A stretch of 64,000 bases of DNA from Lithospermum erythrorhizon (taxonomy: Eukaryota; Streptophyta; Magnoliopsida; Boraginales; Boraginaceae). Below, piece by piece: positions 10,398 to 62,738 of the stretch. The position numbers and the translations under genes are program-made. Location of the stretch: assembly GCA_019722365.1 (NCBI GenBank), contig JADFUC010001333.1:248001-312000 (forward strand), given 5' to 3'. The first letter of the stretch is position 1. Every line of letters starts with the position of its first letter. The notes beneath the pieces are model-generated. The model ran no database searches and had not been told where the DNA came from. It worked only from the letters and a program-made list of their open reading frames with translations.

Positions 10398-12119
10398 TCA
10401 TAAATGAGGAAAATCAATGTTACCTCTATTGGTCTGTCTACTTGCAATTGTATAACCTCCAACATAGTCTTCAGTATCTTTAGGTGTGACATCTGCAGGA
10501 TTCCCAAGTCCATAGCCAAACGAACTAGAATCCCCTAGCTCATTAGATGAAGACTGCCAAGTTGAATCTCCATAAGTGCGGTAAATATCCCCATAAGATC
10601 CTTCGTAACCACCACTAGAAGCAGAGAATGATGTATTGGAAGGTATACTTGTCGCAGTGTTTCTCCCAAGTCCTCCAGCTCCAAGACCAAAACTGTGTTC
10701 TCCACTCCTCAGTACAGTATTTCCAGCACTATAGCCTGAAGTATTTCCACCCATTTGACCAGAAACAGGGGAACTCCAAGATGCATCCTTACTCCCGAAG
10801 ACTCCGAATTCACCACTTCCAGAACCAAAGTAAGAACCAGAAGTAGCAGTTAAAGGAGAATTAGTCATTCCCCCATTTGCCCACATATTCCTTGACGGAG
10901 TTCTCATAAGCGAATCACCTCTATTGCCGCCACTTCCATATCCAATAGGAGTATTGTATCTATTTGTATTTGTGCCAAAATAAGGGCTCATACCCCTGCC
11001 ATAACCAAGGTTGTTACTAAAGTTTGAGCCTCCAAATCCAGATGCCAGTCCTGTTTCCAAATTCATATCCATGCCATATGCAGGTGAGCCAAACTGAGAA
11101 AATCCAGAGCGACCACTACCCACTGGACTGAATCTGCCATCCATTCTGACCCCATACCCTCCAACTGAGTCTAAATTATAGCCTTGCACATAGCTATTAA
11201 GAAGATTATTGGCTCTAGAGAAACCATAGTTATATCCAACAAAAGGACTTCGAATTGGCACTGGAGATTGCTCTTTGGGAACTGCTCTCTTTACCTCAAC
11301 CATTTTACCATTAAGTTCATGAAAGGTTTTGTGCAACACCCTGTCGACTGCATCCTCTGTATCGTAAGTGATAAATCCAAACCCTCTTGGTCTTTGTGTG
11401 TCGTGATCATACATCACAACAACATCTGTTATATTTCCAAACTGCTCAAAGTAATTCTTAAAGTCACTCTCCGTAACCGAGGATGCTAAGCCTCCTACAA
11501 AAATCTTTTTAGAGCGTCCTGGGCCTGGGGACCCTTGGATGCTGCTAATGTTTCTACTTACTATGCTTTGATCATCCCTCGGAACAGCTTTCTTGGCTTC
11601 AACCTATGCATTAAACATAAAAAATAACTAACCAATTGCTTGGTAATAAATTTTGAGTTGCTAAATACAGAGAATCCAAACTTTAAATTCTGCAGAAAAT
11701 GATTTTCTCAAAAAGATGCTCAGTATTTGCTATAAAAGTGGACAGGCTACACTTGACATTTACATCATCACATTAGGCAAATTACACATCACAATATTCA
11801 ATACAACCGAACAAACTAATTATTTCATTATGTTGAGTACTCTTAAAAAATATAATGCATCCAAGCGCATCAAGAATTTGTGAATGGAACTACTTACAGA
11901 GCGTCCATCGATCATGTGTTTCTCATTGGCCACTCTTTCAGCAACTGAAGGGTCAGCAAAGACAATAAAACCAAATCCCCGAGCTCGCCCAGTGTTGCGA
12001 TCTCTCATTATCACAGCCTCCACCACCTCTCCATACGATTTAAAGTATTCCGTAAGGCGTTCCTCATCAGTGTCCCATGAGATCCCCCCGATGAAAAGCT
12101 TACAGAGATCCTGTTCCAT
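10398..12119 (-). CDS. two-RRM hnRNP1-like RNA-binding protein
   Basis: This encodes a nuclear/cytoplasmic RNA-binding protein of the plant hnRNP A/B-like group (Arabidopsis At5g47620/At4g26650 type), thought to act in pre-mRNA or mRNA handling. Exon 1 is 12119-11898 (74 codons, start MEQDLCKLFIGG). A 294-bp intron with GTAAGT donor and TGCATAG acceptor follows. Exon 2 starts at 11603 with VEAKKAVPRD and is open to 10398. RRM1 has RNP2 KLFIGGI (residues 7-13) and RNP1 RGFGFIVF (47-54). RRM2 has KIFVGGLA (107-114) and RGFGFITY (147-154). The C-terminal half is Gly/Ser/Asn/Tyr-rich and low in complexity, typical of the family. The frame ends RQTNRGNIDFPHL, but GAG|GTAACA at 10424/10423 is a plausible donor to a last small exon near 10,170-10,244. 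The true C-terminus is therefore uncertain. Without that splice the protein is about 475 aa, similar to relatives. Confidence 0.88.
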
Positions 12120-12890
12120 CTTTTCTACAGTTCCATAATCAACCACCCCAAAAATGAGTTCAAATAATCCCACCAAAACAACCAAATTTTACAAATGCAA
12201 CACTTATAGAGAGCTCATTAATCACTTTTCACATTCTGGGACATAATTCATTATTTATAAAACATTGTGCAAATCCTCGTCTAATTATAGATCACTTTTA
12301 AAGGCAAGCACACTTATCATCATCCAACCATGTAATGACATCAAAAAAAATATTGACAATTGCATAGCATATATTTAAACAGAGTTGACATAAATTTGAT
12401 CATCAAACTAACTCAAATAGATCCAAATGTGGATTCAAATCATACCTTATCAAGAAAAGTAGCAAACTTCAAGGCATAAGCTGATCAAACAAAAAACTGG
12501 GATTTTTTTTTGTTAAGTCAAGAAGCATCAGATCATTCATGCATTAATCTAAAAACCAAGATTACCCTTTTACCATATCTGCAAAGTTCATAATTCAAAT
12601 ATATTAGATTGGATCAAATACCAAAAATGGATTAACTAAATCAGTTTTTTTTTTTTTAAGATTAAATGGTGAAAAATATTGAATCTTTATATTAAAACTG
12701 ACCATTTAAGGGAATTGAGATGGAAAATTATGAGTGAAGATCTAGGAAGAAGTTTTTATTGGAATAAAAACAGAGGATGTGCTCATCCTCTACCTTTGTT
12801 CTCTTGTCCCTCTCCTTCTTTTCTTTTATTCTACCATAATTTAATATTATTTTGTTTATTTGTTATTTGTTAAATTAAAAGAAATAAAGA
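12120..12890 (-). promoter_or_regulatory. 5' UTR, probable leader intron and promoter of the RNA-binding protein gene
   Basis: On the minus strand, a purine-rich leader (about 12,840-12,760, GA-rich) is followed by a good splice donor AAG|GTATGATTTG at 12,446/12,445. A possible acceptor AACTGTAG lies just upstream of the ATG at 12,119. This suggests a 5'-UTR intron of about 0.3 kb, which is common in this family. The transcription start is not determined. Confidence 0.45.
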
Positions 12891-14827: not shown

Positions 14828-15845
14828 TGTTAACATATAAATATAGATTTATTGATGAATAATATGTTGTGATTACAATAGAGAGTGTCACATGTTTATA
14901 AACGTCAGTAGCTGCTTTAAGCACAATAGAACTAATTAACAATAAATAGATAACTTCTAACCTAATAAGAATAATAGCTTCGATTCTTACCAGCATGTCT
15001 TACCATGATATGCCGATCTATCTGATATGTTAAAATATTAATATAGATTTTATTGATGAATAATATTGTGATTACAATAGAATTGACCTATATTTATAGG
15101 TAATCACTAAACCTAAACCTAATAGAACTAGTCTAACAATAAAATAGATAACTCAACCACAATAACGATAATAGCTTCGATTCTTCTCATGTCTTGCAAT
15201 GATGTCTCGATACATCTCAATATGTTAAAATATTAATATAGATTTTTATTGATGAATAATATGTTATTGATTACAATAGAGGTGAGTTATATTTATAGGT
15301 AATCACTAAACCTAAACCTAATAGAGAAGCTGATACAACAATAAAATAGATAACTCCCAACCACAACCAAAGGATAATAGCTTCCATATTCTTCTCCATA
15401 ATGCTTAAGCCAGTATGCAGTACATCTGATATGTTCAAATATTAATAGATTTTATTGATGAATAATGTGTGTGATTACAATAGAGGTAGGATTATATTTA
15501 TAGGTAATCACTAAGCCCTAAACCTAATAGAGCTAGTCCCAACAATAAAATAGATAACTCCCCCAACCACAATAGAATAATAGCTTCATATTCTTCTCCA
15601 TGAAATCTTCTCGACAAGTAATGCCGATCTATCTTAATATGTTAAAATATTAATATAGATTTTTATTGATGAATAATGTGTTGCGACAACAATAGAGGTG
15701 ACCTATATTTATAGGCAATCACTAAACATAAACTTCAATAGAGCTAATCCCCAACAATAAATAGATAGCTTCTAGCACAATAGGAATAATAGGCTTGCAG
15801 TGCTTCTTCATAATCTTCTCGACAATGTCTCCATCTATCTCAATA
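14828..15845 (-). repeat. five tandem copies of a ~200-bp LTR
   Basis: Copies start (plus-strand coordinates) at 14,828, 15,028, 15,223, 15,432 and 15,640, and the last ends near 15,845. Read on the minus strand each unit starts around T(A/G)TTGAGATAGAT. It contains a TATA box in CCTATAAATATA, a poly(A)-type signal in ATCAATAAAATC, and ends AATATTTTAACA. This is the layout of a complete short LTR (U3-R-U5, TG..CA type). The rightmost copy abuts a purine tract TTGAGGGAGGG (minus strand, 15,858-15,848), so it is the genuine 3' LTR. The other four are additional copies joined head to tail. Units differ by many small substitutions and indels. Confidence 0.8.
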
Positions 15846-17441: not shown

Positions 17442-17596
17442 TTTAAAATATTAATATAGATTTTATTGATGAATAATGTGTTGTGATTACAATAGAGCGA
17501 GGTGACCTATATTTATAGGCAATCACTAAACCTAAACCTAATAGAACTAGTCTAACAATAAAATAGATAACTCACAACCACTGATAAGAATAATTT
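17442..17596 (-). repeat. sixth LTR copy, truncated (probable 5' LTR)
   Basis: It has the same unit as the array at 14.8-15.8 kb: AAAATATTAATATAGATTTT at one end, CTATATTTATAGG, and the AATAGAACTAGTC block. It lacks the last ~40 bp, where the sequence changes to CCCCAAAAAGAAATTATTC. Same orientation as the array, so together they bracket one minus-strand element. Confidence 0.75.
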
Positions 17597-17619
17597 CCCC
17601 AAAAAGAAATTATTCTACA

Positions 17620-29543: not shown

Positions 29544-30667
29544 TGTCACAATATATAGTGTTTGCTTGAGGCCCTGAGTAAATGGCAGTGGTATTTTTCA
29601 CACTTTAATCGATATAATTTGCGCTTGTTTAGATTTATTTGAGTTTAGCGGGTTATCGGTTAAAGTGAAGGAATCGGGCCTTGAATTGAAGATATGGCTT
29701 GATCCACTAAGAGTTACATGAGTCGTGATCCAGAATAAGGGATTAGGTCCGTCACTATTAGGTTATGAAGCACTATAAAGGAGAAGTTAGCAGAGTAAGA
29801 AGGATATATTTTGAGGAAAATTAAAAGTTGTCGAGCTTTTGTGGCGCCCATTGGAAAGTTGAGGATTTGATTTCTTTTTAATTTGGTTTGAGTATATTTT
29901 TAATTCAAGAGTTATTTTTTTATTGTTAAGGATGAATGCTATTCAATTCCATGTATTTATTTATGTCTTTTATTATGAACTAATTTTATTATTAGTCGGG
30001 AACCGTGATAATAATTGGATGGGATGATTTAATTTTCTTGGAGTTAATTTTTACATTTTTAGATTTCATAATTAGAATTATTGTGCATAATTAGTATTTA
30101 ATATCTTGATATCAATATTAAGTCGTTCATATAAGTGATTAATTGCTAGAAATAGGGTTATTAAGCAGGAATTGATAATCGAGAACATGTTTCCTTTACC
30201 GTAGAGATATAGGTAATGCGGTAATGCAATTTAATAAGCATAAGTTATAGAAAAGATCTCTATTTTAAGCTATCATGAGATATAGTTGGTTTCTTAGGAG
30301 ACTTAATTGGTGTAATATCGATTGTATAGGAATGCTTTTTGTTATGAACTAATAAGTAACTACTTAGTTAAATTGAATCACGGCGATCAAATAATATCAT
30401 GTGCCTGACTTTAGCGCCCGGAATATTAAGTACGATCCACTACTTTTTGCATTGATTAGTTTAGTTAATTTAAGTTACGAGTCAATTTAGTTAAAAGTGA
30501 TCTAGATAAAGATTCTTATTTAATTATTGGTTAATTAAGGGATTAAAGAAAAGACCTAGTATTTGTATATTGGAATTTGTGAGGGCGATGCTGGATTATA
30601 CATTCGTTATATTATGACAGTTTCGACCGGACTCGACCGAACATTAAATTGGTGTTGTTACATCAGA
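29544..30667 (+). repeat. 5' LTR of the Athila-like element
   Basis: It matches the right LTR in order: CGATATAATTTGC, GGTTATCGGTTAAA, GGGCCTTGAATTGAAGATA, the CTATAAA(A)G TATA region, TATTGTTA(A)GGATGAATGC, and TTATTATTAGTCGGGA(A)CCG. The first ~50 bp are degraded. Confidence 0.8.
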
Positions 30668-38409: not shown

Positions 38410-39532
38410 TGATAAGTATGCATTATATGGTGTTTTAATTACGTGATGCTTGATGGTATTTTTACCTTAATCCGATATAATTTGCTTTGTTTTTACCGTT
38501 TTATTTGAGTTTAGGCGGTTATCGGTTAAAAGGAATCGGGCCTTGAATTGAAGATATGGCTTGATCATTTAAGAGATTCATGAGTCATGATCGAGAATAA
38601 AGGGATTCGATTAAAAGTCGCTATTAGGTTATGGTAACCTATAAAAGAGGAGAAGTTAGAGTAAAGGAATCATCTTGGAATTTCGAGGAAAGAAGTCATC
38701 AAAGTTATGGGCTTTTGGTAGCACCATTGGAAGTTGAAGTTGATTTCTTTTAATTGGTTTGAATATATTTTTTAATTCCAAGTTATTTTTTATTGTTAGG
38801 ATGAATGCTATTAATTCCATGTATTTATTTGTAATATTTATTATGAACTAATTTTATTATTAGTCGGGACCGTGATGTAGTTGGATGGGATGGTTTAATT
38901 TTCTTAAGGAGTTAATTTATTTCGGTTCGTAATTTCGGGTGTGTGCATAATTAGTATTTAATATCTTAAATCATGATATTAAATGGATTCATATAAGTGA
39001 TTAATTGCTAGAAATAGAATTTGTCATAGGAATTGATAATCGGAACATGTTTTTAACTTACCGTAGAGATATAGGTAATGCCGTGTGCAATTTAATAAGC
39101 ATAAGTTATGAAAAAGATCTCTATTTTAAGCTATCATAGAGGAAATATAGTTTAGTTCTTTGGGAGGCTTGAGTGGTGTGCCGAGAAGTATATCAATTGT
39201 ATAGGAATGCTTTTGTTATGAACTAATAGTAACTACTATGAATTAGAATTGAATCGACGATCGGAGTGAAATCATGTGCTGACTGCTTCGAATATTAAAT
39301 CTGATCCACTTACTTTGCGTTGATTAGTTTAGTTAATTTAAGTTAAAGGTCAATTTAGTTAAGTAGTCTAGATAAAAAGATTTACTATTTAATTATTAGT
39401 TAATTAAGTTAAGAAAGACTGAGTATTTAGCGTATATTGGAATTTGAGGCGATACCGTTCTTACATGCGTTATATTACTTGACACGGCCGGGGCTAGGCC
39501 AGGAGCTACATAAGTGGTGTTGTCGGTAACCA
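38410..39532 (+). repeat. 3' LTR of the Athila-like element
   Basis: It starts TGATAAGTATGCATTATATG directly after the purine tract and ends near GTCGGTAACCA. TATA region ACCTATAAAAGAGG lies at about 38,636. It pairs along its length with 29,544-30,667. Confidence 0.82.
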
Positions 39533-46623: not shown

Positions 46624-47350
46624 ACAAATATATTAGATACAAGCACCAAATGGAATGAAGCATAGTAGCATAATGGTGTGACACATCGCGGGGACCCCGG
46701 ACACGTCAGAGCACGCCTCACGAAAAACTCTACCTCCACCACAAGAAGTCACAATTCGGGACTTCCCAAGTCCTGAAGTTCCTCTGATTGGCAGCCAAAA
46801 TTGGCTCACTTCCAACACTTCATCAAATTTTGGGTGTTTCATATTAACATGTTTATGAAAAAAAATTAATCTCAGGAATTATTGTACTCATATGGAATAA
46901 TATTCAGGATTTCAAATGTGAAAGTAAACATTATTCAACTCATATAAGCCCCAGACCACCGGTCAAGTGAAAGTGGAAACTTTATTTCTATGCATTTTCC
47001 AACTCTCAAGATTATATTTAGACCAGAAAATTAGTCTTAGTAAGTTCCTAGTAATTGAGCACTGTGCTGCATGTATTTTCCTAGAGTACTTTGATTTTCT
47101 AGAACTTGCTGATTTCTATATATAGAGAAGTAGTGTCCTTGAATGCTTAAATCCCCCCTCCTCCTCTCTGGATAAATCATACCCTTTTTCCATCCAATAT
47201 AAACTGAATCTTTAGTTCTCTGATATCTTTGTTTCCACTTTTGTAATGAAGTAAGAGCTTTTAGACCTACTATATGGTTGCAATTATTCAAATTCTAGTT
47301 GTTGAATATAATAATTCCAAAAGTACTTACCCTTAGTTGAGCTGACATGC
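46624..47350 (+). promoter_or_regulatory. promoter and 5' leader of the Ca2+-ATPase homologue
   Basis: A TATA box (TCTATATATAGAG, TATATATA at 47,117-47,124) lies 227 bp upstream of the ATG. A CT-rich stretch CCCCCCTCCTCCTCTCTGG follows at 47,153-47,171, a common plant leader feature. The ATG context (GCATGG) is favourable. No intron is evident. The upstream part (46,624-47,000) shows nothing coding. Confidence 0.55.
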
Positions 47351-50300
47351 ATGGATTCTTCTGATAAGAAAGCAGTCTTAATCAACCCTTCATTGCAATC
47401 CCATGAAGTTAGCAAAACTACTAGTAATTGTCCCATTCTTGAATTGCATGAAACCTCTGCATTATCAAGCACCCACTCTATCACTTTCCCAGAAAATTAT
47501 GCCAATACTAATAACCAACATGATCATCAATCAGATGAAAGCCTTGATTTCTCAATTAGCCCTGAAACACTTGCTCGACTAGTTGAGAGTAAGGATGCAA
47601 ACTATCTCCTACAATTTGGAGGACCTAAGAAGGTGGCTTTTTTGCTTGAAACTGATATCCAAAATGGTATATTTGGTGATCAATCTGATCTTGATCGCCG
47701 TCATAAAGCTTTTGGATCAAATCAAAATCAATACTGCCATGATCATCAATCTTCTCTAGGAATTCACCAGCTTGCTTTTGAAGCTTGTAAGGATACAACA
47801 ATAATCCTTCTTCTATGTTGTGCAGTTCTCTCACTGGCAATTGGAATTAAGAGATATGGTCCACAAGAAGGGATAGTTGATGGGATTCTCATTTTCTTGT
47901 GTATACTTGTTCTTGTTTATGTTGGTGTTGTTTTCCAATATATCAAGTCAAGATGGATGATCAAGAAAAGATTGAAGCAGAAAAGGTTTGCTTATGTTGT
48001 GAGGAATGGAAAATGTCAGAGGATTTCTGGTTCAGAAGTTGTGGTTGGTGATATAGTATGCCTACAAAAGGGAAGTGAAGTTCCAGCTGATGGGTTGTTC
48101 ATTAATGATGATAGTTCTTCATTTAAGCTAGATTGTGGTCATAAAGCTTCAAATTTTTCCAATTTTCCTTCTTTGTTCACTGGTGCAAAAGTTGCAGAAG
48201 GTGGATGCAAAATGCTGGTGACTTCTGTGGGAGAAAAAACAGAAAGAAGCAAGTTGATGGGGTTGTTAGGCAACAATTCTAAGAAAAGTAATGACTTTTA
48301 TGACTCATCATCAAAACTGCAACTTTCGATCGAAAAGATTAGTACAAATTTGGAGAATGTTTGGTTGATCCTTACATTGTTAGTGCTTGTTGTTCAAGTG
48401 CTAAGATGTTTTGTCTGGGAATCAAAGTACTGTGATAAAAATCACAATCCAGATCCAAAAGGTTTGAAAGATTCATTGCAGGAGGTGGCTCATGAAACTG
48501 CAAAGATAATGAAGAAGCAAACTGGAAAAGTTAATGGATTGGTTGCAATGCTTTGTATCTTGATGTTTGCAATAAGGGATTGTTTGCCTTTGGGTATCTT
48601 CACAACTTTCTTTTATGCTTCCAAGAAATTGAAGCCCTTCAGAGCCATCATCCAAAAGCTTCCAGCTTGTGCAACATTAGGATGGATCACCACAATTTGC
48701 ATCTGCAATACTGACGATTTAGCTCTGAAGTATTCAAACATGGCAGATTTGTGGATTGGAATGAAGAAAATTGTCCAAGAAGATGATAATATGTCCAAAG
48801 AAGTCAATCATCAAGTAGTCAAATTCTTCCAAGAAGCAATATTTTGGACCAATGATTCTGCTGAAGTTCAAGAAATAGAAGAGGATGCTCTCTTCTGCTG
48901 GGCTGAAAAGGTACTCTCCATGGATGTGGAAAAAATTAAGAAAAGTTGTTCATTCAACCATTCTGAAGCTCCTGATATTCACAGAAACTATAGGTCAGTG
49001 ATTCCAGAACAACCCACAGAATCAAATCATGCTTTTGATGTTTACTGGAAAGGGGATCCAGGAATGATACTTTTAATGTGCTCTCACTATTTGGATGTGG
49101 ATGGAACCATGCAAGAGCTTGATGAAGAAAAGAGACAAAATTTCAACCAAATAATTAAAGACATTGCATCCAGCAGCCTGAGATGTTTTGCATTTGCTCA
49201 CAAGCAAATCTTCAAAAAAGAATATGATGGAGAAGAGTTTCTTGAATCTTTTGAAGATGGGTTGATCTTATTAGGCCTTGTAAACTTGAAGAATCCATAT
49301 CCACCAGAGGTAATTCAATCAGTGGAAGCTTGTGTGAAATCAGGAGTTACCATCAAGCTAGTAGTGGATGATGATCTGAAAACTGCAGGATTCATGGCAC
49401 GTTTTTCTGGAATTTTAGGCCCTGGAAAAGATTTAAATCAAGCAGTGGTTCATGCTTCAATATTTCGAAACAGCTCTCCTGAAGAAAGAGTAAAAATGAT
49501 TGACAACATCCATGTATTAGCTGATGCTTCTCCAGAGGATAAACTATGGATGGTGCAATGCTTGAGACAGAAGTCTGAGGTTGTTGCAGTCACAGGAAGA
49601 TGTTCCAGAGACTTGCCTTCTCTCAGAGAAGCGGACGTTAGTCTTCTGATGGGAGATCATTGTGCAGAATGCATCAAAGAAGATGTTGAAGTAGTCGTTT
49701 TCGGATTAAGCATTGGAATGATCTCTACCCTTGTCAGGTTTGGAAGAACTGTGTGCCAAAATCTTGAAAAATTCATTGATTTTCAATTGACTGTCAATGT
49801 TGCAGCCTTTGGAATCAACTTCATTGTTGTTCTCACCACAAGTGAGGTTCAATTTACAGCATTTGAGCTTCTTTGGGTGAACATAATCATGGAGGTTTTT
49901 GGTGCTTTAGCGCTGTCTATTCAAATGGTAGAGCTTTTACCTTCTGAAAGTACCAATCAAGTGGAGAAACTACCAAAAAGGAACAATCATTATGGAACAG
50001 GTTCGGTTGTAACAAAAACAATGTGGAGAAACATAGCTCTGCATTCTCTGTTTCAAGTGAGCCTCATGGTGATCCTAAGCAAAAAAGGGGGTGAAATTCT
50101 TCATGCAGATGAAGGTGTGTTGAAAACCATGATTTTCTTGTTCTATGTTATGTGCCAAGTGTTTGCATTGGTGGGGTGCATGGAGATTAATGAAGCTAGT
50201 TTCTTGGAGGGGTTGGGGAAATTCAAGAACCATATGTTTCTCATCATAGTGGGAATTATTGTGGTTATGCAAGTAGCATTGATTGAGGTAATGGCTATTG

Positions 50301-50431
50301 TTGCTCATTGGAGGAAAATAAACCTTACACAATGGTGCATTTGTACTGGATTAGCTGTGTTATCTATGCCTATAGATTATGTTGTTAATTGGATTAAACA
50401 CCATCTAAGTGCCCTGATCAATGTAAGTTGA
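47351..50431 (+). CDS. ACA12/13-like P2B Ca2+-ATPase homologue lacking all catalytic motifs (pseudoenzyme)
   Basis: An intronless 1026-aa frame has the full length and ten membrane helices of plasma-membrane autoinhibited Ca2+-pumps (ACA12 type, ~1030 aa). M1 is ~149-166, M2 ~174-195, M3 ~335-355 and M4 ~397-418, with six C-terminal helices. Signature blocks remain (KDTTIILLLCCAVLSL, VPADGLF, ACATLGWITTIC, SPEDKLWMVQCLRQK, FQLTVNVAAFGINF, ELLWVNIIMEVFGALAL). Catalytic positions are changed. DKTGTLT reads CNTDDLA (Cys452 replaces the phosphorylated Asp). TGES becomes ASNF (266-269). PEGLPL is RDCLPL (409-414). KGA(A/S)E gives KGDPG (567-571). TGDN turns into VDDD (672-675). GDGTNDAP reads GRCSRDLP (749-756). 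The M6 Ca2+-site Asp is Glu848. From family knowledge such a protein cannot form the phosphoenzyme. The open frame suggests retained non-transport function, or recent origin; I infer the former. Confidence 0.9.
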   Translation: MDSSDKKAVLINPSLQSHEVSKTTSNCPILELHETSALSSTHSITFPENYANTNNQHDHQSDESLDFSISPETLARLVESKDANYLLQFGGPKKVAFLLETDIQNGIFGDQSDLDRRHKAFGSNQNQYCHDHQSSLGIHQLAFEACKDTTIILLLCCAVLSLAIGIKRYGPQEGIVDGILIFLCILVLVYVGVVFQYIKSRWMIKKRLKQKRFAYVVRNGKCQRISGSEVVVGDIVCLQKGSEVPADGLFINDDSSSFKLDCGHKASNFSNFPSLFTGAKVAEGGCKMLVTSVGEKTERSKLMGLLGNNSKKSNDFYDSSSKLQLSIEKISTNLENVWLILTLLVLVVQVLRCFVWESKYCDKNHNPDPKGLKDSLQEVAHETAKIMKKQTGKVNGLVAMLCILMFAIRDCLPLGIFTTFFYASKKLKPFRAIIQKLPACATLGWITTICICNTDDLALKYSNMADLWIGMKKIVQEDDNMSKEVNHQVVKFFQEAIFWTNDSAEVQEIEEDALFCWAEKVLSMDVEKIKKSCSFNHSEAPDIHRNYRSVIPEQPTESNHAFDVYWKGDPGMILLMCSHYLDVDGTMQELDEEKRQNFNQIIKDIASSSLRCFAFAHKQIFKKEYDGEEFLESFEDGLILLGLVNLKNPYPPEVIQSVEACVKSGVTIKLVVDDDLKTAGFMARFSGILGPGKDLNQAVVHASIFRNSSPEERVKMIDNIHVLADASPEDKLWMVQCLRQKSEVVAVTGRCSRDLPSLREADVSLLMGDHCAECIKEDVEVVVFGLSIGMISTLVRFGRTVCQNLEKFIDFQLTVNVAAFGINFIVVLTTSEVQFTAFELLWVNIIMEVFGALALSIQMVELLPSESTNQVEKLPKRNNHYGTGSVVTKTMWRNIALHSLFQVSLMVILSKKGGEILHADEGVLKTMIFLFYVMCQVFALVGCMEINEASFLEGLGKFKNHMFLIIVGIIVVMQVALIEVMAIVAHWRKINLTQWCICTGLAVLSMPIDYVVNWIKHHLSALINVS

Positions 50432-50590
50432 TCCAGCTACCATGTTGTTAATTGGATTAGCTGTATTATCTATGCCTATAGATTATATTGTACATAAACA
50501 CCATCTAAGTGCCCTGATCAATGTATAAGTTGATCCAGCTACCATGTTGTTAATTGGATTAGCTGTGTTATCTATGCCTATATTGTACAT
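50348..50590 (+). repeat. tandem duplication across the ATPase-like stop codon
   Basis: Units start at 50,348, 50,454 and 50,556 with GGATTAGCTGT(G/A)TTATCTATG. They run 106 bp, 102 bp and a partial ~35 bp. The block includes the last coding helix (LAVLSMPIDYVVNWIKHHL) and the stop. The second unit carries small deletions and reads GTATAAGTTGA instead of GTAAGTTGA at the stop. Confidence 0.9.
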
Positions 50591-61400: not shown

Positions 61401-62738
61401 TTTAGAATCCGACGGTCTGAAGTCTTCCTTAGTTGTAAGTCCTTTTTTTAATACTTGAATTTTGATATTAGATAAGCATTGAAGTCGTATTGAGGTATGT
61501 ATAACTTTTACTTTCGATTATCCTCGAAGCGTCGTTGTCGGACGTTTGCGGACGATAAGGTATTGAGTTCAAGAAGGATGGTGTGGTATGTGCAGCGATA
61601 GATATACCTTCTAGGTAGAGAATGAGGAGGCTTCGATGATGTGTTGCGAACCTTAATTGTCTTTCAAAATTTTTGTAATGCCTCGATTATTAATGGTGTT
61701 TATGCTTTAGATAATCGTGTCTCACGATTTAAACGTGTTTGTTGGCTTATGTTTGAATGAAATGTTAGTAATTATGATTTATAAAATGTTTGAATTTATT
61801 TTTTATATTCATTTCTTTGTTATGCTTTGTGTTTGTTTATAAGAAATATACATAATATATAAGCGAGGAGTTCTAATTATTGGCTTAGAGGCGGCTTGAA
61901 AAGTATTTATAAGTTACCCACTTGTCTTAAAAACACTTCGATATCATCGAAGATGTTTTGTCGTACTCTTTGGCAGAATTTTGAAGTATTCTCTAAATAA
62001 TTTTTTGTAATAGTGTTTTTAACCATGATGTAAGTTCAATTGTTCAAATCTGCATTAGTATTCAGATTGATTTCTTTTGTCATAATAATCATTATACTCC
62101 ATTTATATTTGCGTCCGATTTCATATAGTCAGTATATGTATTAAAATCCATGCAATAATTTAAATATATATTAAAGTTAACTCATAAAAGAATAATTAAA
62201 TACCTGATCTTGAAGAGAAGCATAAGGCTGATGAGATCGTGATACTCTTCTTGTTTTTCTTTCTGCTTTCACCGTTGACCGATTGTTATCCACCATATTA
62301 TCTACAAATTAAAGTATATTTCGAAAGCAAAATGAATAATCATTGTAATTTGATCAAGCTTTCAGAAATCCAGGAGGAAGCTATAGATCAAATAATAATA
62401 TTACGAACTATTCGATATCATCAATTTATCATATTATTAATTACCAAAACTCCCCATGATCGTCGATGAATATGATATTACGTATCTAATTGTGTTGAGG
62501 TAGAATGTGATCTTCGTTTTTGAGTGGGTAAATCCTCGGTAGAATCACAAGAGTCGGGTAAAAAACGGTCCAGACGAAGTAGACAATCTTTATGAGACGA
62601 TGAATCTTCTTCTTGTTTATGTTGTTCATTATTGGCAGAAGCATCAGAAAACATAGCACGCACGAAGGAAGCCTCGATTGAGTTCAAGAATTTCACATGC
62701 TCCTCATTTGTCCATTCCCTCATTCTATCCATCGTCAC
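58450..62738 (-). CDS. COR27/COR28-like small protein, exons separated by a CACTA insertion
   Basis: Exon 1 (62,738 to about 62,480) starts MTMDRMREWTNEEHVKFLNS, then IEASFVRAMF. W-T-(N/D)-E-(K/E)-H-x5-S-x-EASFV is the hallmark of the COR27/COR28 family of cold- and light-responsive, clock-linked regulators. Later LLRLDRFLPDSCDSTEDL follows. Exon 2 (62,301-62,204) lies between a TTTGTAG acceptor and a GTATTTAA donor and ends QPYASLQDQ. A third piece at 58,485-58,450 follows an AACGCAG acceptor and reads VVPQGELRRRE then stop, giving DQ|VVPQ in phase. The join of exons 1 and 2 is not clean: the only good donor (GAT AC|GTAATA) leaves a phase that does not match exon 2. The start of the transcript, or a small mutation, is therefore unresolved. 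Family function is known from Arabidopsis; here it is inference. Confidence 0.6.
58739..62015 (+). mobile_element. CACTA (En/Spm) DNA transposon, 3,277 bp
   Basis: The left end is CACTACTACAAAAAAATATT. The right end, reverse-complemented, is CACTATTACAAAAAATTATT. TTT flanks both ends (58,736-58,738 and 62,016-62,018), the 3-bp duplication expected for CACTA elements. Inside is a plus-strand TNP2 transposase remnant. The element lies in an intron of the minus-strand COR27/28-like gene. Confidence 0.9.
59150..60470 (+). pseudogene. TNP2-like CACTA transposase, decayed
   Basis: Plus-strand pieces are GLKHERIHAC (59,169-59,198), then SSWNSVPLIVHGR (59,517), MQKHKYLSIILTIYGLPKQS (59,588-59,647), TGEDLKLLWEKGVDVYDGLR (59,678) and VAESYISTLLGTMGKSRN (60,172). 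LSKKEKKSF and VLKSRDCHILM (60,427) follow. These follow the order of the Transposase_21 (TNP2) domain, such as IGLKHEKIHACPNDC.., EDLKLLWEEGV.VWD and KSHDCHVLMQ. Stops and frameshifts are common. The C-terminal transposon domain is missing, and the element is about half the usual size, so it is non-autonomous. Confidence 0.82.

What the first reader, a model, noticed from the sequence alone, without database searches (positions are those of the whole stretch)
47351..50431. Full-length Ca2+-ATPase homologue in which every catalytic motif has been replaced
The frame is open for 1026 codons and keeps the ten helices and many structural blocks of ACA12/13-type pumps. However, seven separate functional motifs are changed: Cys452 for the phosphorylated Asp, ASNF for TGES, RDCLPL for PEGLPL, KGDPG for KGAAE, VDDD for TGDN, GRCSRDLP for GDGTNDAP, and Glu848 for the M6 Asp. 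A neutral pseudogene of this divergence should have gained stops or frameshifts; none are present. This points to a P-type ATPase pseudoenzyme with a possible regulatory or scaffold role, for example binding calmodulin or partnering active ACAs. I know of no described plant case.
Basis: partly seen in the sequence, partly recalled or inferred. Interest (0 to 1): 0.88.

Follow-up and report, generated by a model that had tools for sequence, protein, structure and literature searches.

The report
Conserved dead calcium pump family
This plant gene encodes a full-length relative of the cell's calcium pumps in which the pumping motifs have been replaced, and the same replacements recur in dozens of proteins from other flowering plants, so it is likely a long-kept non-pumping protein, predicted to act as a regulator or receptor at a membrane, rather than a broken gene.

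Summary
47351-50431 (+) is one open frame of 1026 codons, homologous to ACA12/13 Ca2+ pumps, with its catalytic and ion-gate motifs replaced. It is not a lone oddity. Among 243 proteins from three capped searches, 42 carry its M4 motif ([R/K][D/E]GL for PEGL) and 83 a second one (QHGMP-type); none of these 125 has DKTG[T/I]. Named members of the first set are asterids plus Melia; of the second, mostly rosids. With a Macleaya protein they form one clade (100/100) that shares a longer M3-M4 loop. The query's lineage has fixed residues of its own: basic M4 residue 28 of 28, KNPY Asn 28 of 28, Arg before Asp 27 of 28. It has 203 conserved columns where uniform-rate simulation gives 75. AlphaFold keeps the pump fold. 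A calmodulin role is not supported: the basic Trp segment of the N-tail is gone. One plant precedent is in print, Arabidopsis At5g53010, in a table footnote. dN/dS, expression and the host genome were not tested: the genome search did not complete. The function proposed is inference.

The parts
47351..50431 (+). single-exon coding sequence of the pump-like protein, 1026 aa
47351..47548 (+). N-tail (residues 1-66), disordered; without the basic Trp segment seen in active relatives
47549..47761 (+). front helices of the A domain (residues 67-137); about as conserved in the query's lineage as in active pumps (mean identity 0.44 against 0.45)
48146..48157 (+). place of the lost TGES loop (residues 266-269, ASNF)
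48413..48526 (+). extended M3-M4 loop (residues 355-392), with NPDPKG and a predicted helix at 375-391
48572..48592 (+). M4 motif IRDCLPL (residues 408-414) in place of IPEGLPL; Arg409-Asp410
48704..48724 (+). CNTDDLA (residues 452-458) in place of DKTGTLT
49049..49063 (+). KGDPG (residues 567-571) in place of KGAAE
49289..49300 (+). KNPY (residues 647-650) in place of KDPC
49364..49375 (+). VDDD (residues 672-675) in place of TGDN
49595..49618 (+). GRCSRDLP (residues 749-756) in place of GDGTNDAP
49892..49894 (+). Glu848 in M6 in place of the Ca2+-ligand Asp
50347..50582 (+). 102-bp tandem repeat, 2.3 copies; its first copy holds the last codons and the stop

Best explanation
The gene encodes a P2B-type (ACA12/13-like) protein with the pump fold predicted and its catalytic motifs replaced, which is likely a non-pumping membrane regulator or receptor kept by selection. 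Steps shown: the motif losses; a clade of relatives with the same kind of losses and with conserved residues of their own; the longer M3-M4 loop; the lost N-terminal basic Trp segment. Steps inferred: without the phospho-Asp, its Lys, TGES and the first Mg2+ Asp, it would not form or break down a phosphoenzyme. The Arg (or Lys) that replaces the M4 proline, next to an Asp and facing the M6 Glu/Asp, would act as a built-in cation and hold the membrane part in one state. The conserved front of the A domain and the M3-M4 loop, which faces outside in P2 pumps (recalled), would be the surfaces by which it binds a partner or a signal, most simply to tune an active Ca2+ pump or its complex.
Against: No dN/dS, no transcript, no protein and no partner were seen. 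The lineage evolves faster than active pumps (Camellia-Cornus identity 0.579 against 0.791), and M5-M6, the core of transport, is among its least kept parts, as relaxed constraint would also give. Several side chains of the ion site are kept in kind (M4 acid 28 of 28, M6 Asn 25, M6 acid 27 of 28), so some ion binding is not excluded. The simulation tests for uneven constraint, not for a function; on the query's branch the simulated mean was already 0.76, from few sites. Model and solved pumps superpose only at 11-12 Angstrom rmsd over the whole length. The built-in cation and the partner are inference; one Sesamum row lacks the M6 and M5 groups.
Confidence: 0.68

Rival explanations
1. A decaying duplicate under relaxed constraint: the ACA12/13 copy became dispensable and drifts, with frames not yet broken by chance.
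For: Fast evolution; degraded, truncated or partial relatives exist (e.g. P0070, P0075, P0083; gene models may be at fault); DKTGT has been lost again in several younger ACA12/13 copies, such as Lamiales P0068/P0076/P0077/P0080 and Shorea P0087/P0090/P0099.
Against: Full-length frames in a clade that spans asterids, Melia and, with the sister lineage, rosids and Macleaya; replacement residues that are themselves fixed; conserved columns far above the uniform-rate simulation. About 4.1% of substitutions in this frame make a stop, 12.7 expected per 0.1 substitutions per site.
Confidence: 0.1
2. A non-pumping ion sensor, channel or leak: the ion site is altered but still binds a cation, and the protein passes or senses it without ATP.
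For: In the query's lineage the M4 acid (28 of 28), M6 Asn (25 of 28) and M6 acid (27 of 28) are kept in kind.
Against: A fixed Arg/Lys stands beside the M4 acid (28 of 28); the sister lineage has His and mostly Cys at the two acids, so a shared ion role is unlikely.
Confidence: 0.12
3. Still a pump or hydrolase with unusual chemistry, using another residue in place of the phospho-Asp.
For: The second Asp of GDGxND (28 of 28) and the SPxDK Lys (25 of 28, Arg in 3) are kept; the sister lineage keeps the Asp itself in 23 of 29 rows, though never the Lys.
Against: No common candidate: the position is Gly, Ser or Cys in most of the query's lineage, TGES is lost, and the first Mg2+ Asp is Ser, Thr, Arg and others. 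The query falls below the curated score of the PMCA-type model (421.0 against 507.05).
Confidence: 0.06

Closest known systems
ACA12/ACA13-type plasma-membrane Ca2+-ATPases of eudicots (P2B)
   Same: Homology over the whole length (36-38% identity), predicted fold; Arabidopsis ACA12 and ACA13 are also single-exon (passages of PMC5920303)
   Different: All of 27 active rows keep DKTGT, TGES, PEGLP, TGDN and GDGTNDAP; the query keeps none of these motifs intact; N-tail segment lost, M3-M4 loop longer
Arabidopsis At5g53010 (F4KHQ2)
   Same: A P2B-like protein printed as 'not likely to function as an ATPase': TGES > TASD, DKTGTLT missing, TGDN > TDND, GDGTNDAP changed; cDNAs exist (PMC3355532, passages). 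Its expression varies with gene-body methylation (one legend passage of PMC12537493)
   Different: Its M4 motif is printed as PVGL, not RDGL or QHGMP. Its sequence was not in any of my lists, so whether it belongs to either lineage is untested
QHGMP-type lineage of rosids, Vitis and Camellia (found here)
   Same: Sister lineage with the same longer M3-M4 loop and shared replacements such as F234>S and M668>L, in active numbering
   Different: M4 Gln-His in 29 of 29, M6 Cys in 24 of 29; it keeps the phospho-Asp in 23 of 29 but not the Lys; its N-tail keeps a Trp-containing basic segment in many members
ACA8, solved structure 8qmp
   Same: Best Foldseek match, E 9.3e-50, and best sequence match in the PDB
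   Different: Active, calmodulin-regulated pump (passages of PMC5920303)

Membership tests
P2B (PMCA/ACA-type) Ca2+ pump | Phosphorylation motif DKTGT | tested here: not met
   CNTDD in the query; no DKT in any of the 28 aligned lineage rows
P2B (PMCA/ACA-type) Ca2+ pump | TGES loop of the A domain | tested here: not met
P2B (PMCA/ACA-type) Ca2+ pump | PEGLP in M4 and Asp in M6 | tested here: not met
   RDCLP and Glu848
P2B (PMCA/ACA-type) Ca2+ pump | Curated score of TIGR01517 (507.05 bits) | tested here: not met
   421.0 bits; active relative P0039 1007.2
P2B (PMCA/ACA-type) Ca2+ pump | Terminal calmodulin-binding, autoinhibitory segment | tested here: not met
   no Trp and no basic helix in the 66-residue N-tail; by sequence only, binding not tested
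P2B (PMCA/ACA-type) Ca2+ pump | Ca2+ transport and Ca2+-dependent ATPase | not testable with these tools
   bench assay needed
P-type ATPase superfamily (by descent) | Superfamily model and domains | tested here: met
   TIGR01494 67.7 against 62.3 bits; PF00122 44.9 against 28.1, PF00689 85.1 against 27.3. PF00702 not found, PF00690 19.9 just under 20.4
P-type ATPase superfamily (by descent) | Ten-helix fold with A, P and N domains | tested here: met
   predicted model
RDGL lineage defined here | Place in the clade and its M4, KNPY and RD residues | tested here: met
   the query has Cys411 where its kin have Gly
Orthologue of At5g53010 | Common clade | not tested
   sequence not retrieved

The most novel reading that the evidence does not exclude
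Eudicots carry an ancient family of P-type pseudo-pumps in two lineages, each with its own fixed ion-site code. In the query's lineage a tethered Arg/Lys replaces the transported cation and locks the transmembrane core, turning a Ca2+ pump into a static membrane receptor or regulatory subunit whose new surfaces are the extended outer M3-M4 loop and the A-domain front.
Probability: 0.3. Interest if true: 0.88.

Novelty: new variant of a known kind. Interest (0 to 1): 0.75.

Why it matters
Pseudoenzymes are known for many enzyme classes. For P-type pumps my paper searches found none under that name: 0 papers for 'P-type ATPase' with 'pseudoenzyme', 0 for 'pseudoenzymes' with 'Ca2+-ATPase', 'plasma membrane' and 'evolution', 0 for 'pseudoenzyme' with 'calcium pump'. 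Such genes are named 'calcium-transporting ATPase 12/13' in databases. Family surveys can miss them: a barley inventory discarded sequences without DKTGT (passage of PMC10763278), and a pepper survey lists eleven proteins that all carry its ten motifs, one with DKTGTLT (passages of PMC11641697). If the family is functional, crops such as tomato, coffee, apple and soybean have an unstudied component that may touch Ca2+ signalling, and the question of what a pump does without pumping becomes directly testable by gene removal.

Tried and rejected
Sequencing error or chance frame: rejected, because the frame is open and homologous throughout and relatives share the kind of changes.

Species-private pseudogene: rejected. 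Independent pseudogenes joined by long-branch attraction: made less likely by the mixture model, the shared loop length and shared residues, not excluded. One search warned of long branches meeting (P0091 with P0117) and of a long row, P0208; the careful tree left P0091 and P0208 out and gave no warning. The active ACA12/13 rows form a clade only weakly there (61/82).

Calmodulin scaffold: not supported by sequence. A printed passage says ACA12 binds calmodulin without being stimulated (PMC5920303), so absence of binding is not shown.

Led nowhere: the genome search for paralogues, active ACAs and dN/dS in the own genome (14 calls, none answered); At5g53010 membership; Rfam on the window (0 matches); paper search returned mostly mite papers; one search (15 of 70 papers listed) showed no plant pseudo-pump.

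Rows dropped: residue counts use 28 of the 42 RDGL-type proteins (14 near-copies or short models left out, plus fragment P0070, which lacks the stretch), 29 of the 83 QHGMP-type and 27 active rows. All lists are the best 120 of 833, 885 and 427 hits, so counts say nothing on total numbers. Of five species pairs, two (Coffea-Forsythia, Coffea-Cornus) compare active paralogues from different branches and are not used.

Full report
What is there. The window holds one long frame on the + strand, 47351-50431, ATG to TGA, 1026 aa. The other five frames of the stretch have 45 to 86 stops. Pfam finds the E1-E2 ATPase and C-terminal cation ATPase domains above their cut-offs and no hydrolase domain at E up to 1. 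The best solved relative by sequence is Arabidopsis ACA8, 8qmp, E 7.6e-139. The curated PMCA-type model gives 421.0 bits against a cut-off of 507.05; an active relative scores 1007.2.

Motifs. Against active ACA12/13-type rows the query reads TICICNTDDLALK for TICTDKTGTLTLN, FAIRDCLPLGI for VAIPEGLPLAV, IKLVVDDDLKTA for IKMITGDNVFTA and VTGRCSRDLPSL for VTGDGTNDAPAL; also KGDPG for KGAAE, KNPYP for KDPCR, and Glu848 for the M6 Asp. The TGES loop is gone. Some catalytic residues remain: Asp754, Lys731, Lys567, and Asn844 in M6.

Relatives. A search of 5.8 billion proteins gave 833 hits, best 120 listed. The nearest are not active pumps but proteins at 38-48% identity that share the changes: named ones are Ilex, Coffea, Cinchona, Nyssa, Cornus, Paulownia, Sesamum, Perilla, Salvia, Olea, Forsythia, Fraxinus, Nicotiana, Lycium, Capsicum, Solanum lycopersicum, Withania, Datura, Camellia and Melia. 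By recalled taxonomy these are six asterid orders; Melia is a rosid of Sapindales. A third search, from Malus, Pyrus, Macleaya and one unnamed protein, showed a second lineage with IQHGMP in M4, in Rosaceae, Fagales, Sapindales, Fabales, Ricinus, Jatropha, Benincasa, Vitis and others, and a Camellia protein. Over all 243 proteins returned, counted by pattern: 42 RDGL-type, 0 with DKTG[T/I]; 83 QHGMP-type, 0 with it; 87 PEGL-type, 83 with it; 31 with none of the three M4 patterns, 4 of them with it.

Tree. In a careful tree of 34 rows the query's lineage has support 100/100, the rosid lineage with Macleaya 100/100, and both together 100/100, apart from active ACA12/13 rows, which are themselves only weakly a clade (61/82). 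A 72-row quick tree agrees (99) and adds P0091. Inside the query's lineage the branching follows plant orders roughly, with Melia and two Camellia proteins outermost. The query lies with Forsythia, Coffea, Paulownia and Nicotiana (100/99), so the window likely comes from a lamiid; the organism was not identified. Melia and Camellia hold both lineages. Macleaya, of Ranunculales, has Gln at the M4 Pro but keeps the Glu, and has Asn for the phospho-Asp, as an early step would. Both lineages, Macleaya, P0091 and Camellia P0205 have a longer M3-M4 stretch: 51-66 in 28 of 28, 55-59 in 29 of 29, and 56 in each of the three, against 45-47 in 27 of 27 active rows.

Constraint. In 28 aligned rows of the query's lineage the M4 Pro is Arg 22, Lys 6; the next residue Asp 25, Glu 3; KNPY Asn 28; the Asn of GDGTND is Arg 27, Gly 1; its second Asp 28; M6 acid 27 (Glu 16, Asp 11). 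In the rosid lineage the M4 pair is Gln 29, His 29; M6 is Cys 24 of 29; the phospho-Asp is kept in 23 of 29 (Glu in 6) but its Lys in 0. The rosid lineage is thus less plainly dead by that one residue. There are 38 sites where the query's lineage and active rows are each 85% or more conserved with different residues, and 42 for the rosid lineage. The query's lineage has 203 columns of 937 conserved at 85%, against a mean of 74.8 and maximum of 102 in 50 simulations with one rate for all sites; for the rosid lineage 208 against 65.1 and 81; active rows also exceed theirs, 557 against 336. The query itself keeps 83 of 92 near-invariant sites; simulated mean 0.76 from few sites. The lineage evolves faster than active pumps: Camellia-Cornus identity 0.579 against 0.791, Coffea-Cinchona 0.608 against 0.860, Forsythia-Camellia 0.499 against 0.748. 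By region, the front helices of the A domain are as conserved as in active pumps (0.44 against 0.45), M5-M6 much less (0.49 against 0.91).

N-tail. Active rows have a tail of median 79 residues with a Trp in 23 of 27 and a basic window. The query's lineage has a median of 20, Trp in 4 of 28; the query's 66 residues have none. Two of its rows begin at the core and may be mis-modelled. The rosid lineage has a median of 99, Trp in 22 of 29. This speaks against calmodulin binding in the query, by sequence alone.

Reading. Shown: loss of motifs, a clade with its own conserved code, a retained predicted fold. Inferred: no pumping; a built-in Arg/Lys cation at the ion site; a regulatory or receptor role through the A-domain front and the M3-M4 loop. 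Active kin act in growth, stomata and immunity in Arabidopsis, and ACA12 is induced by pathogens (passages of PMC5920303), so a role in tuning Ca2+ signals is the simplest guess, no more.

Known before. Pedersen et al. 2012 note Arabidopsis At5g53010 in a footnote as unlikely to be an ATPase (passages); another paper lists it as a putative Ca2+ ATPase found in plastid proteomics (one passage of PMC7081724). I found no paper on a conserved family (searches; the library lacks most subscription journals).

Limits. The genome search did not complete in 14 tries, so dN/dS, copies in the own genome and the active ACAs of the same plant are untested; no transcript data were at hand.

Noticed in passing
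window 50347-50582: A 102-bp unit repeated 2.3 times head to tail; the first copy includes the last codons and the stop of the gene, so the C-terminal coding end is duplicated into the 3' flank.
   Followed up: partly
window 47347-47364: An upstream ATG overlaps the start out of frame and ends after five codons; it could lower translation.
   Followed up: no
proteins P0068, P0076, P0077, P0080 (Paulownia, Sesamum): A separate, younger group inside the active ACA12/13 branch that lost DKTGT, mostly with PEGLP or PQGLP, TGEN and GDG(T/A/P)NDAP kept or half kept.
   Followed up: partly
proteins P0087, P0090, P0099, P0122 (Shorea and kin); P0053, P0082 (Gossypium); P0069 (Quercus); P0105 (Penstemon); P0121 (Oldenlandia): Further ACA12/13-like copies with NKTGT for DKTGT, suggesting repeated loss of the phospho-Asp in this subfamily.
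   Followed up: no
query residues 619-637 and kin: The link between the N and P domains is acidic and longer in many members of the lineage (median length 29, charge -6, down to -23) than in active rows (20, -3).
   Followed up: partly
Cinchona calisaya ACH5RR_027790, 027792, 027796, 027800: Four RDGL-type genes with nearby locus tags on one contig, as a local array would give.
   Followed up: no
window 10398-12185, minus strand: Two frames with RNA recognition motifs, likely exons of an hnRNP-like gene (the name is recalled).
   Followed up: partly
window 62478-62738, minus strand: Short frame whose start resembles cold-regulated COR27/28-type proteins; recalled resemblance, not tested.
   Followed up: no
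window 15084-15178, 15283-15377, 17503-17597; 29668-29741 and 38530-38603: Dispersed direct repeats of 95 and 74 bases.
   Followed up: no
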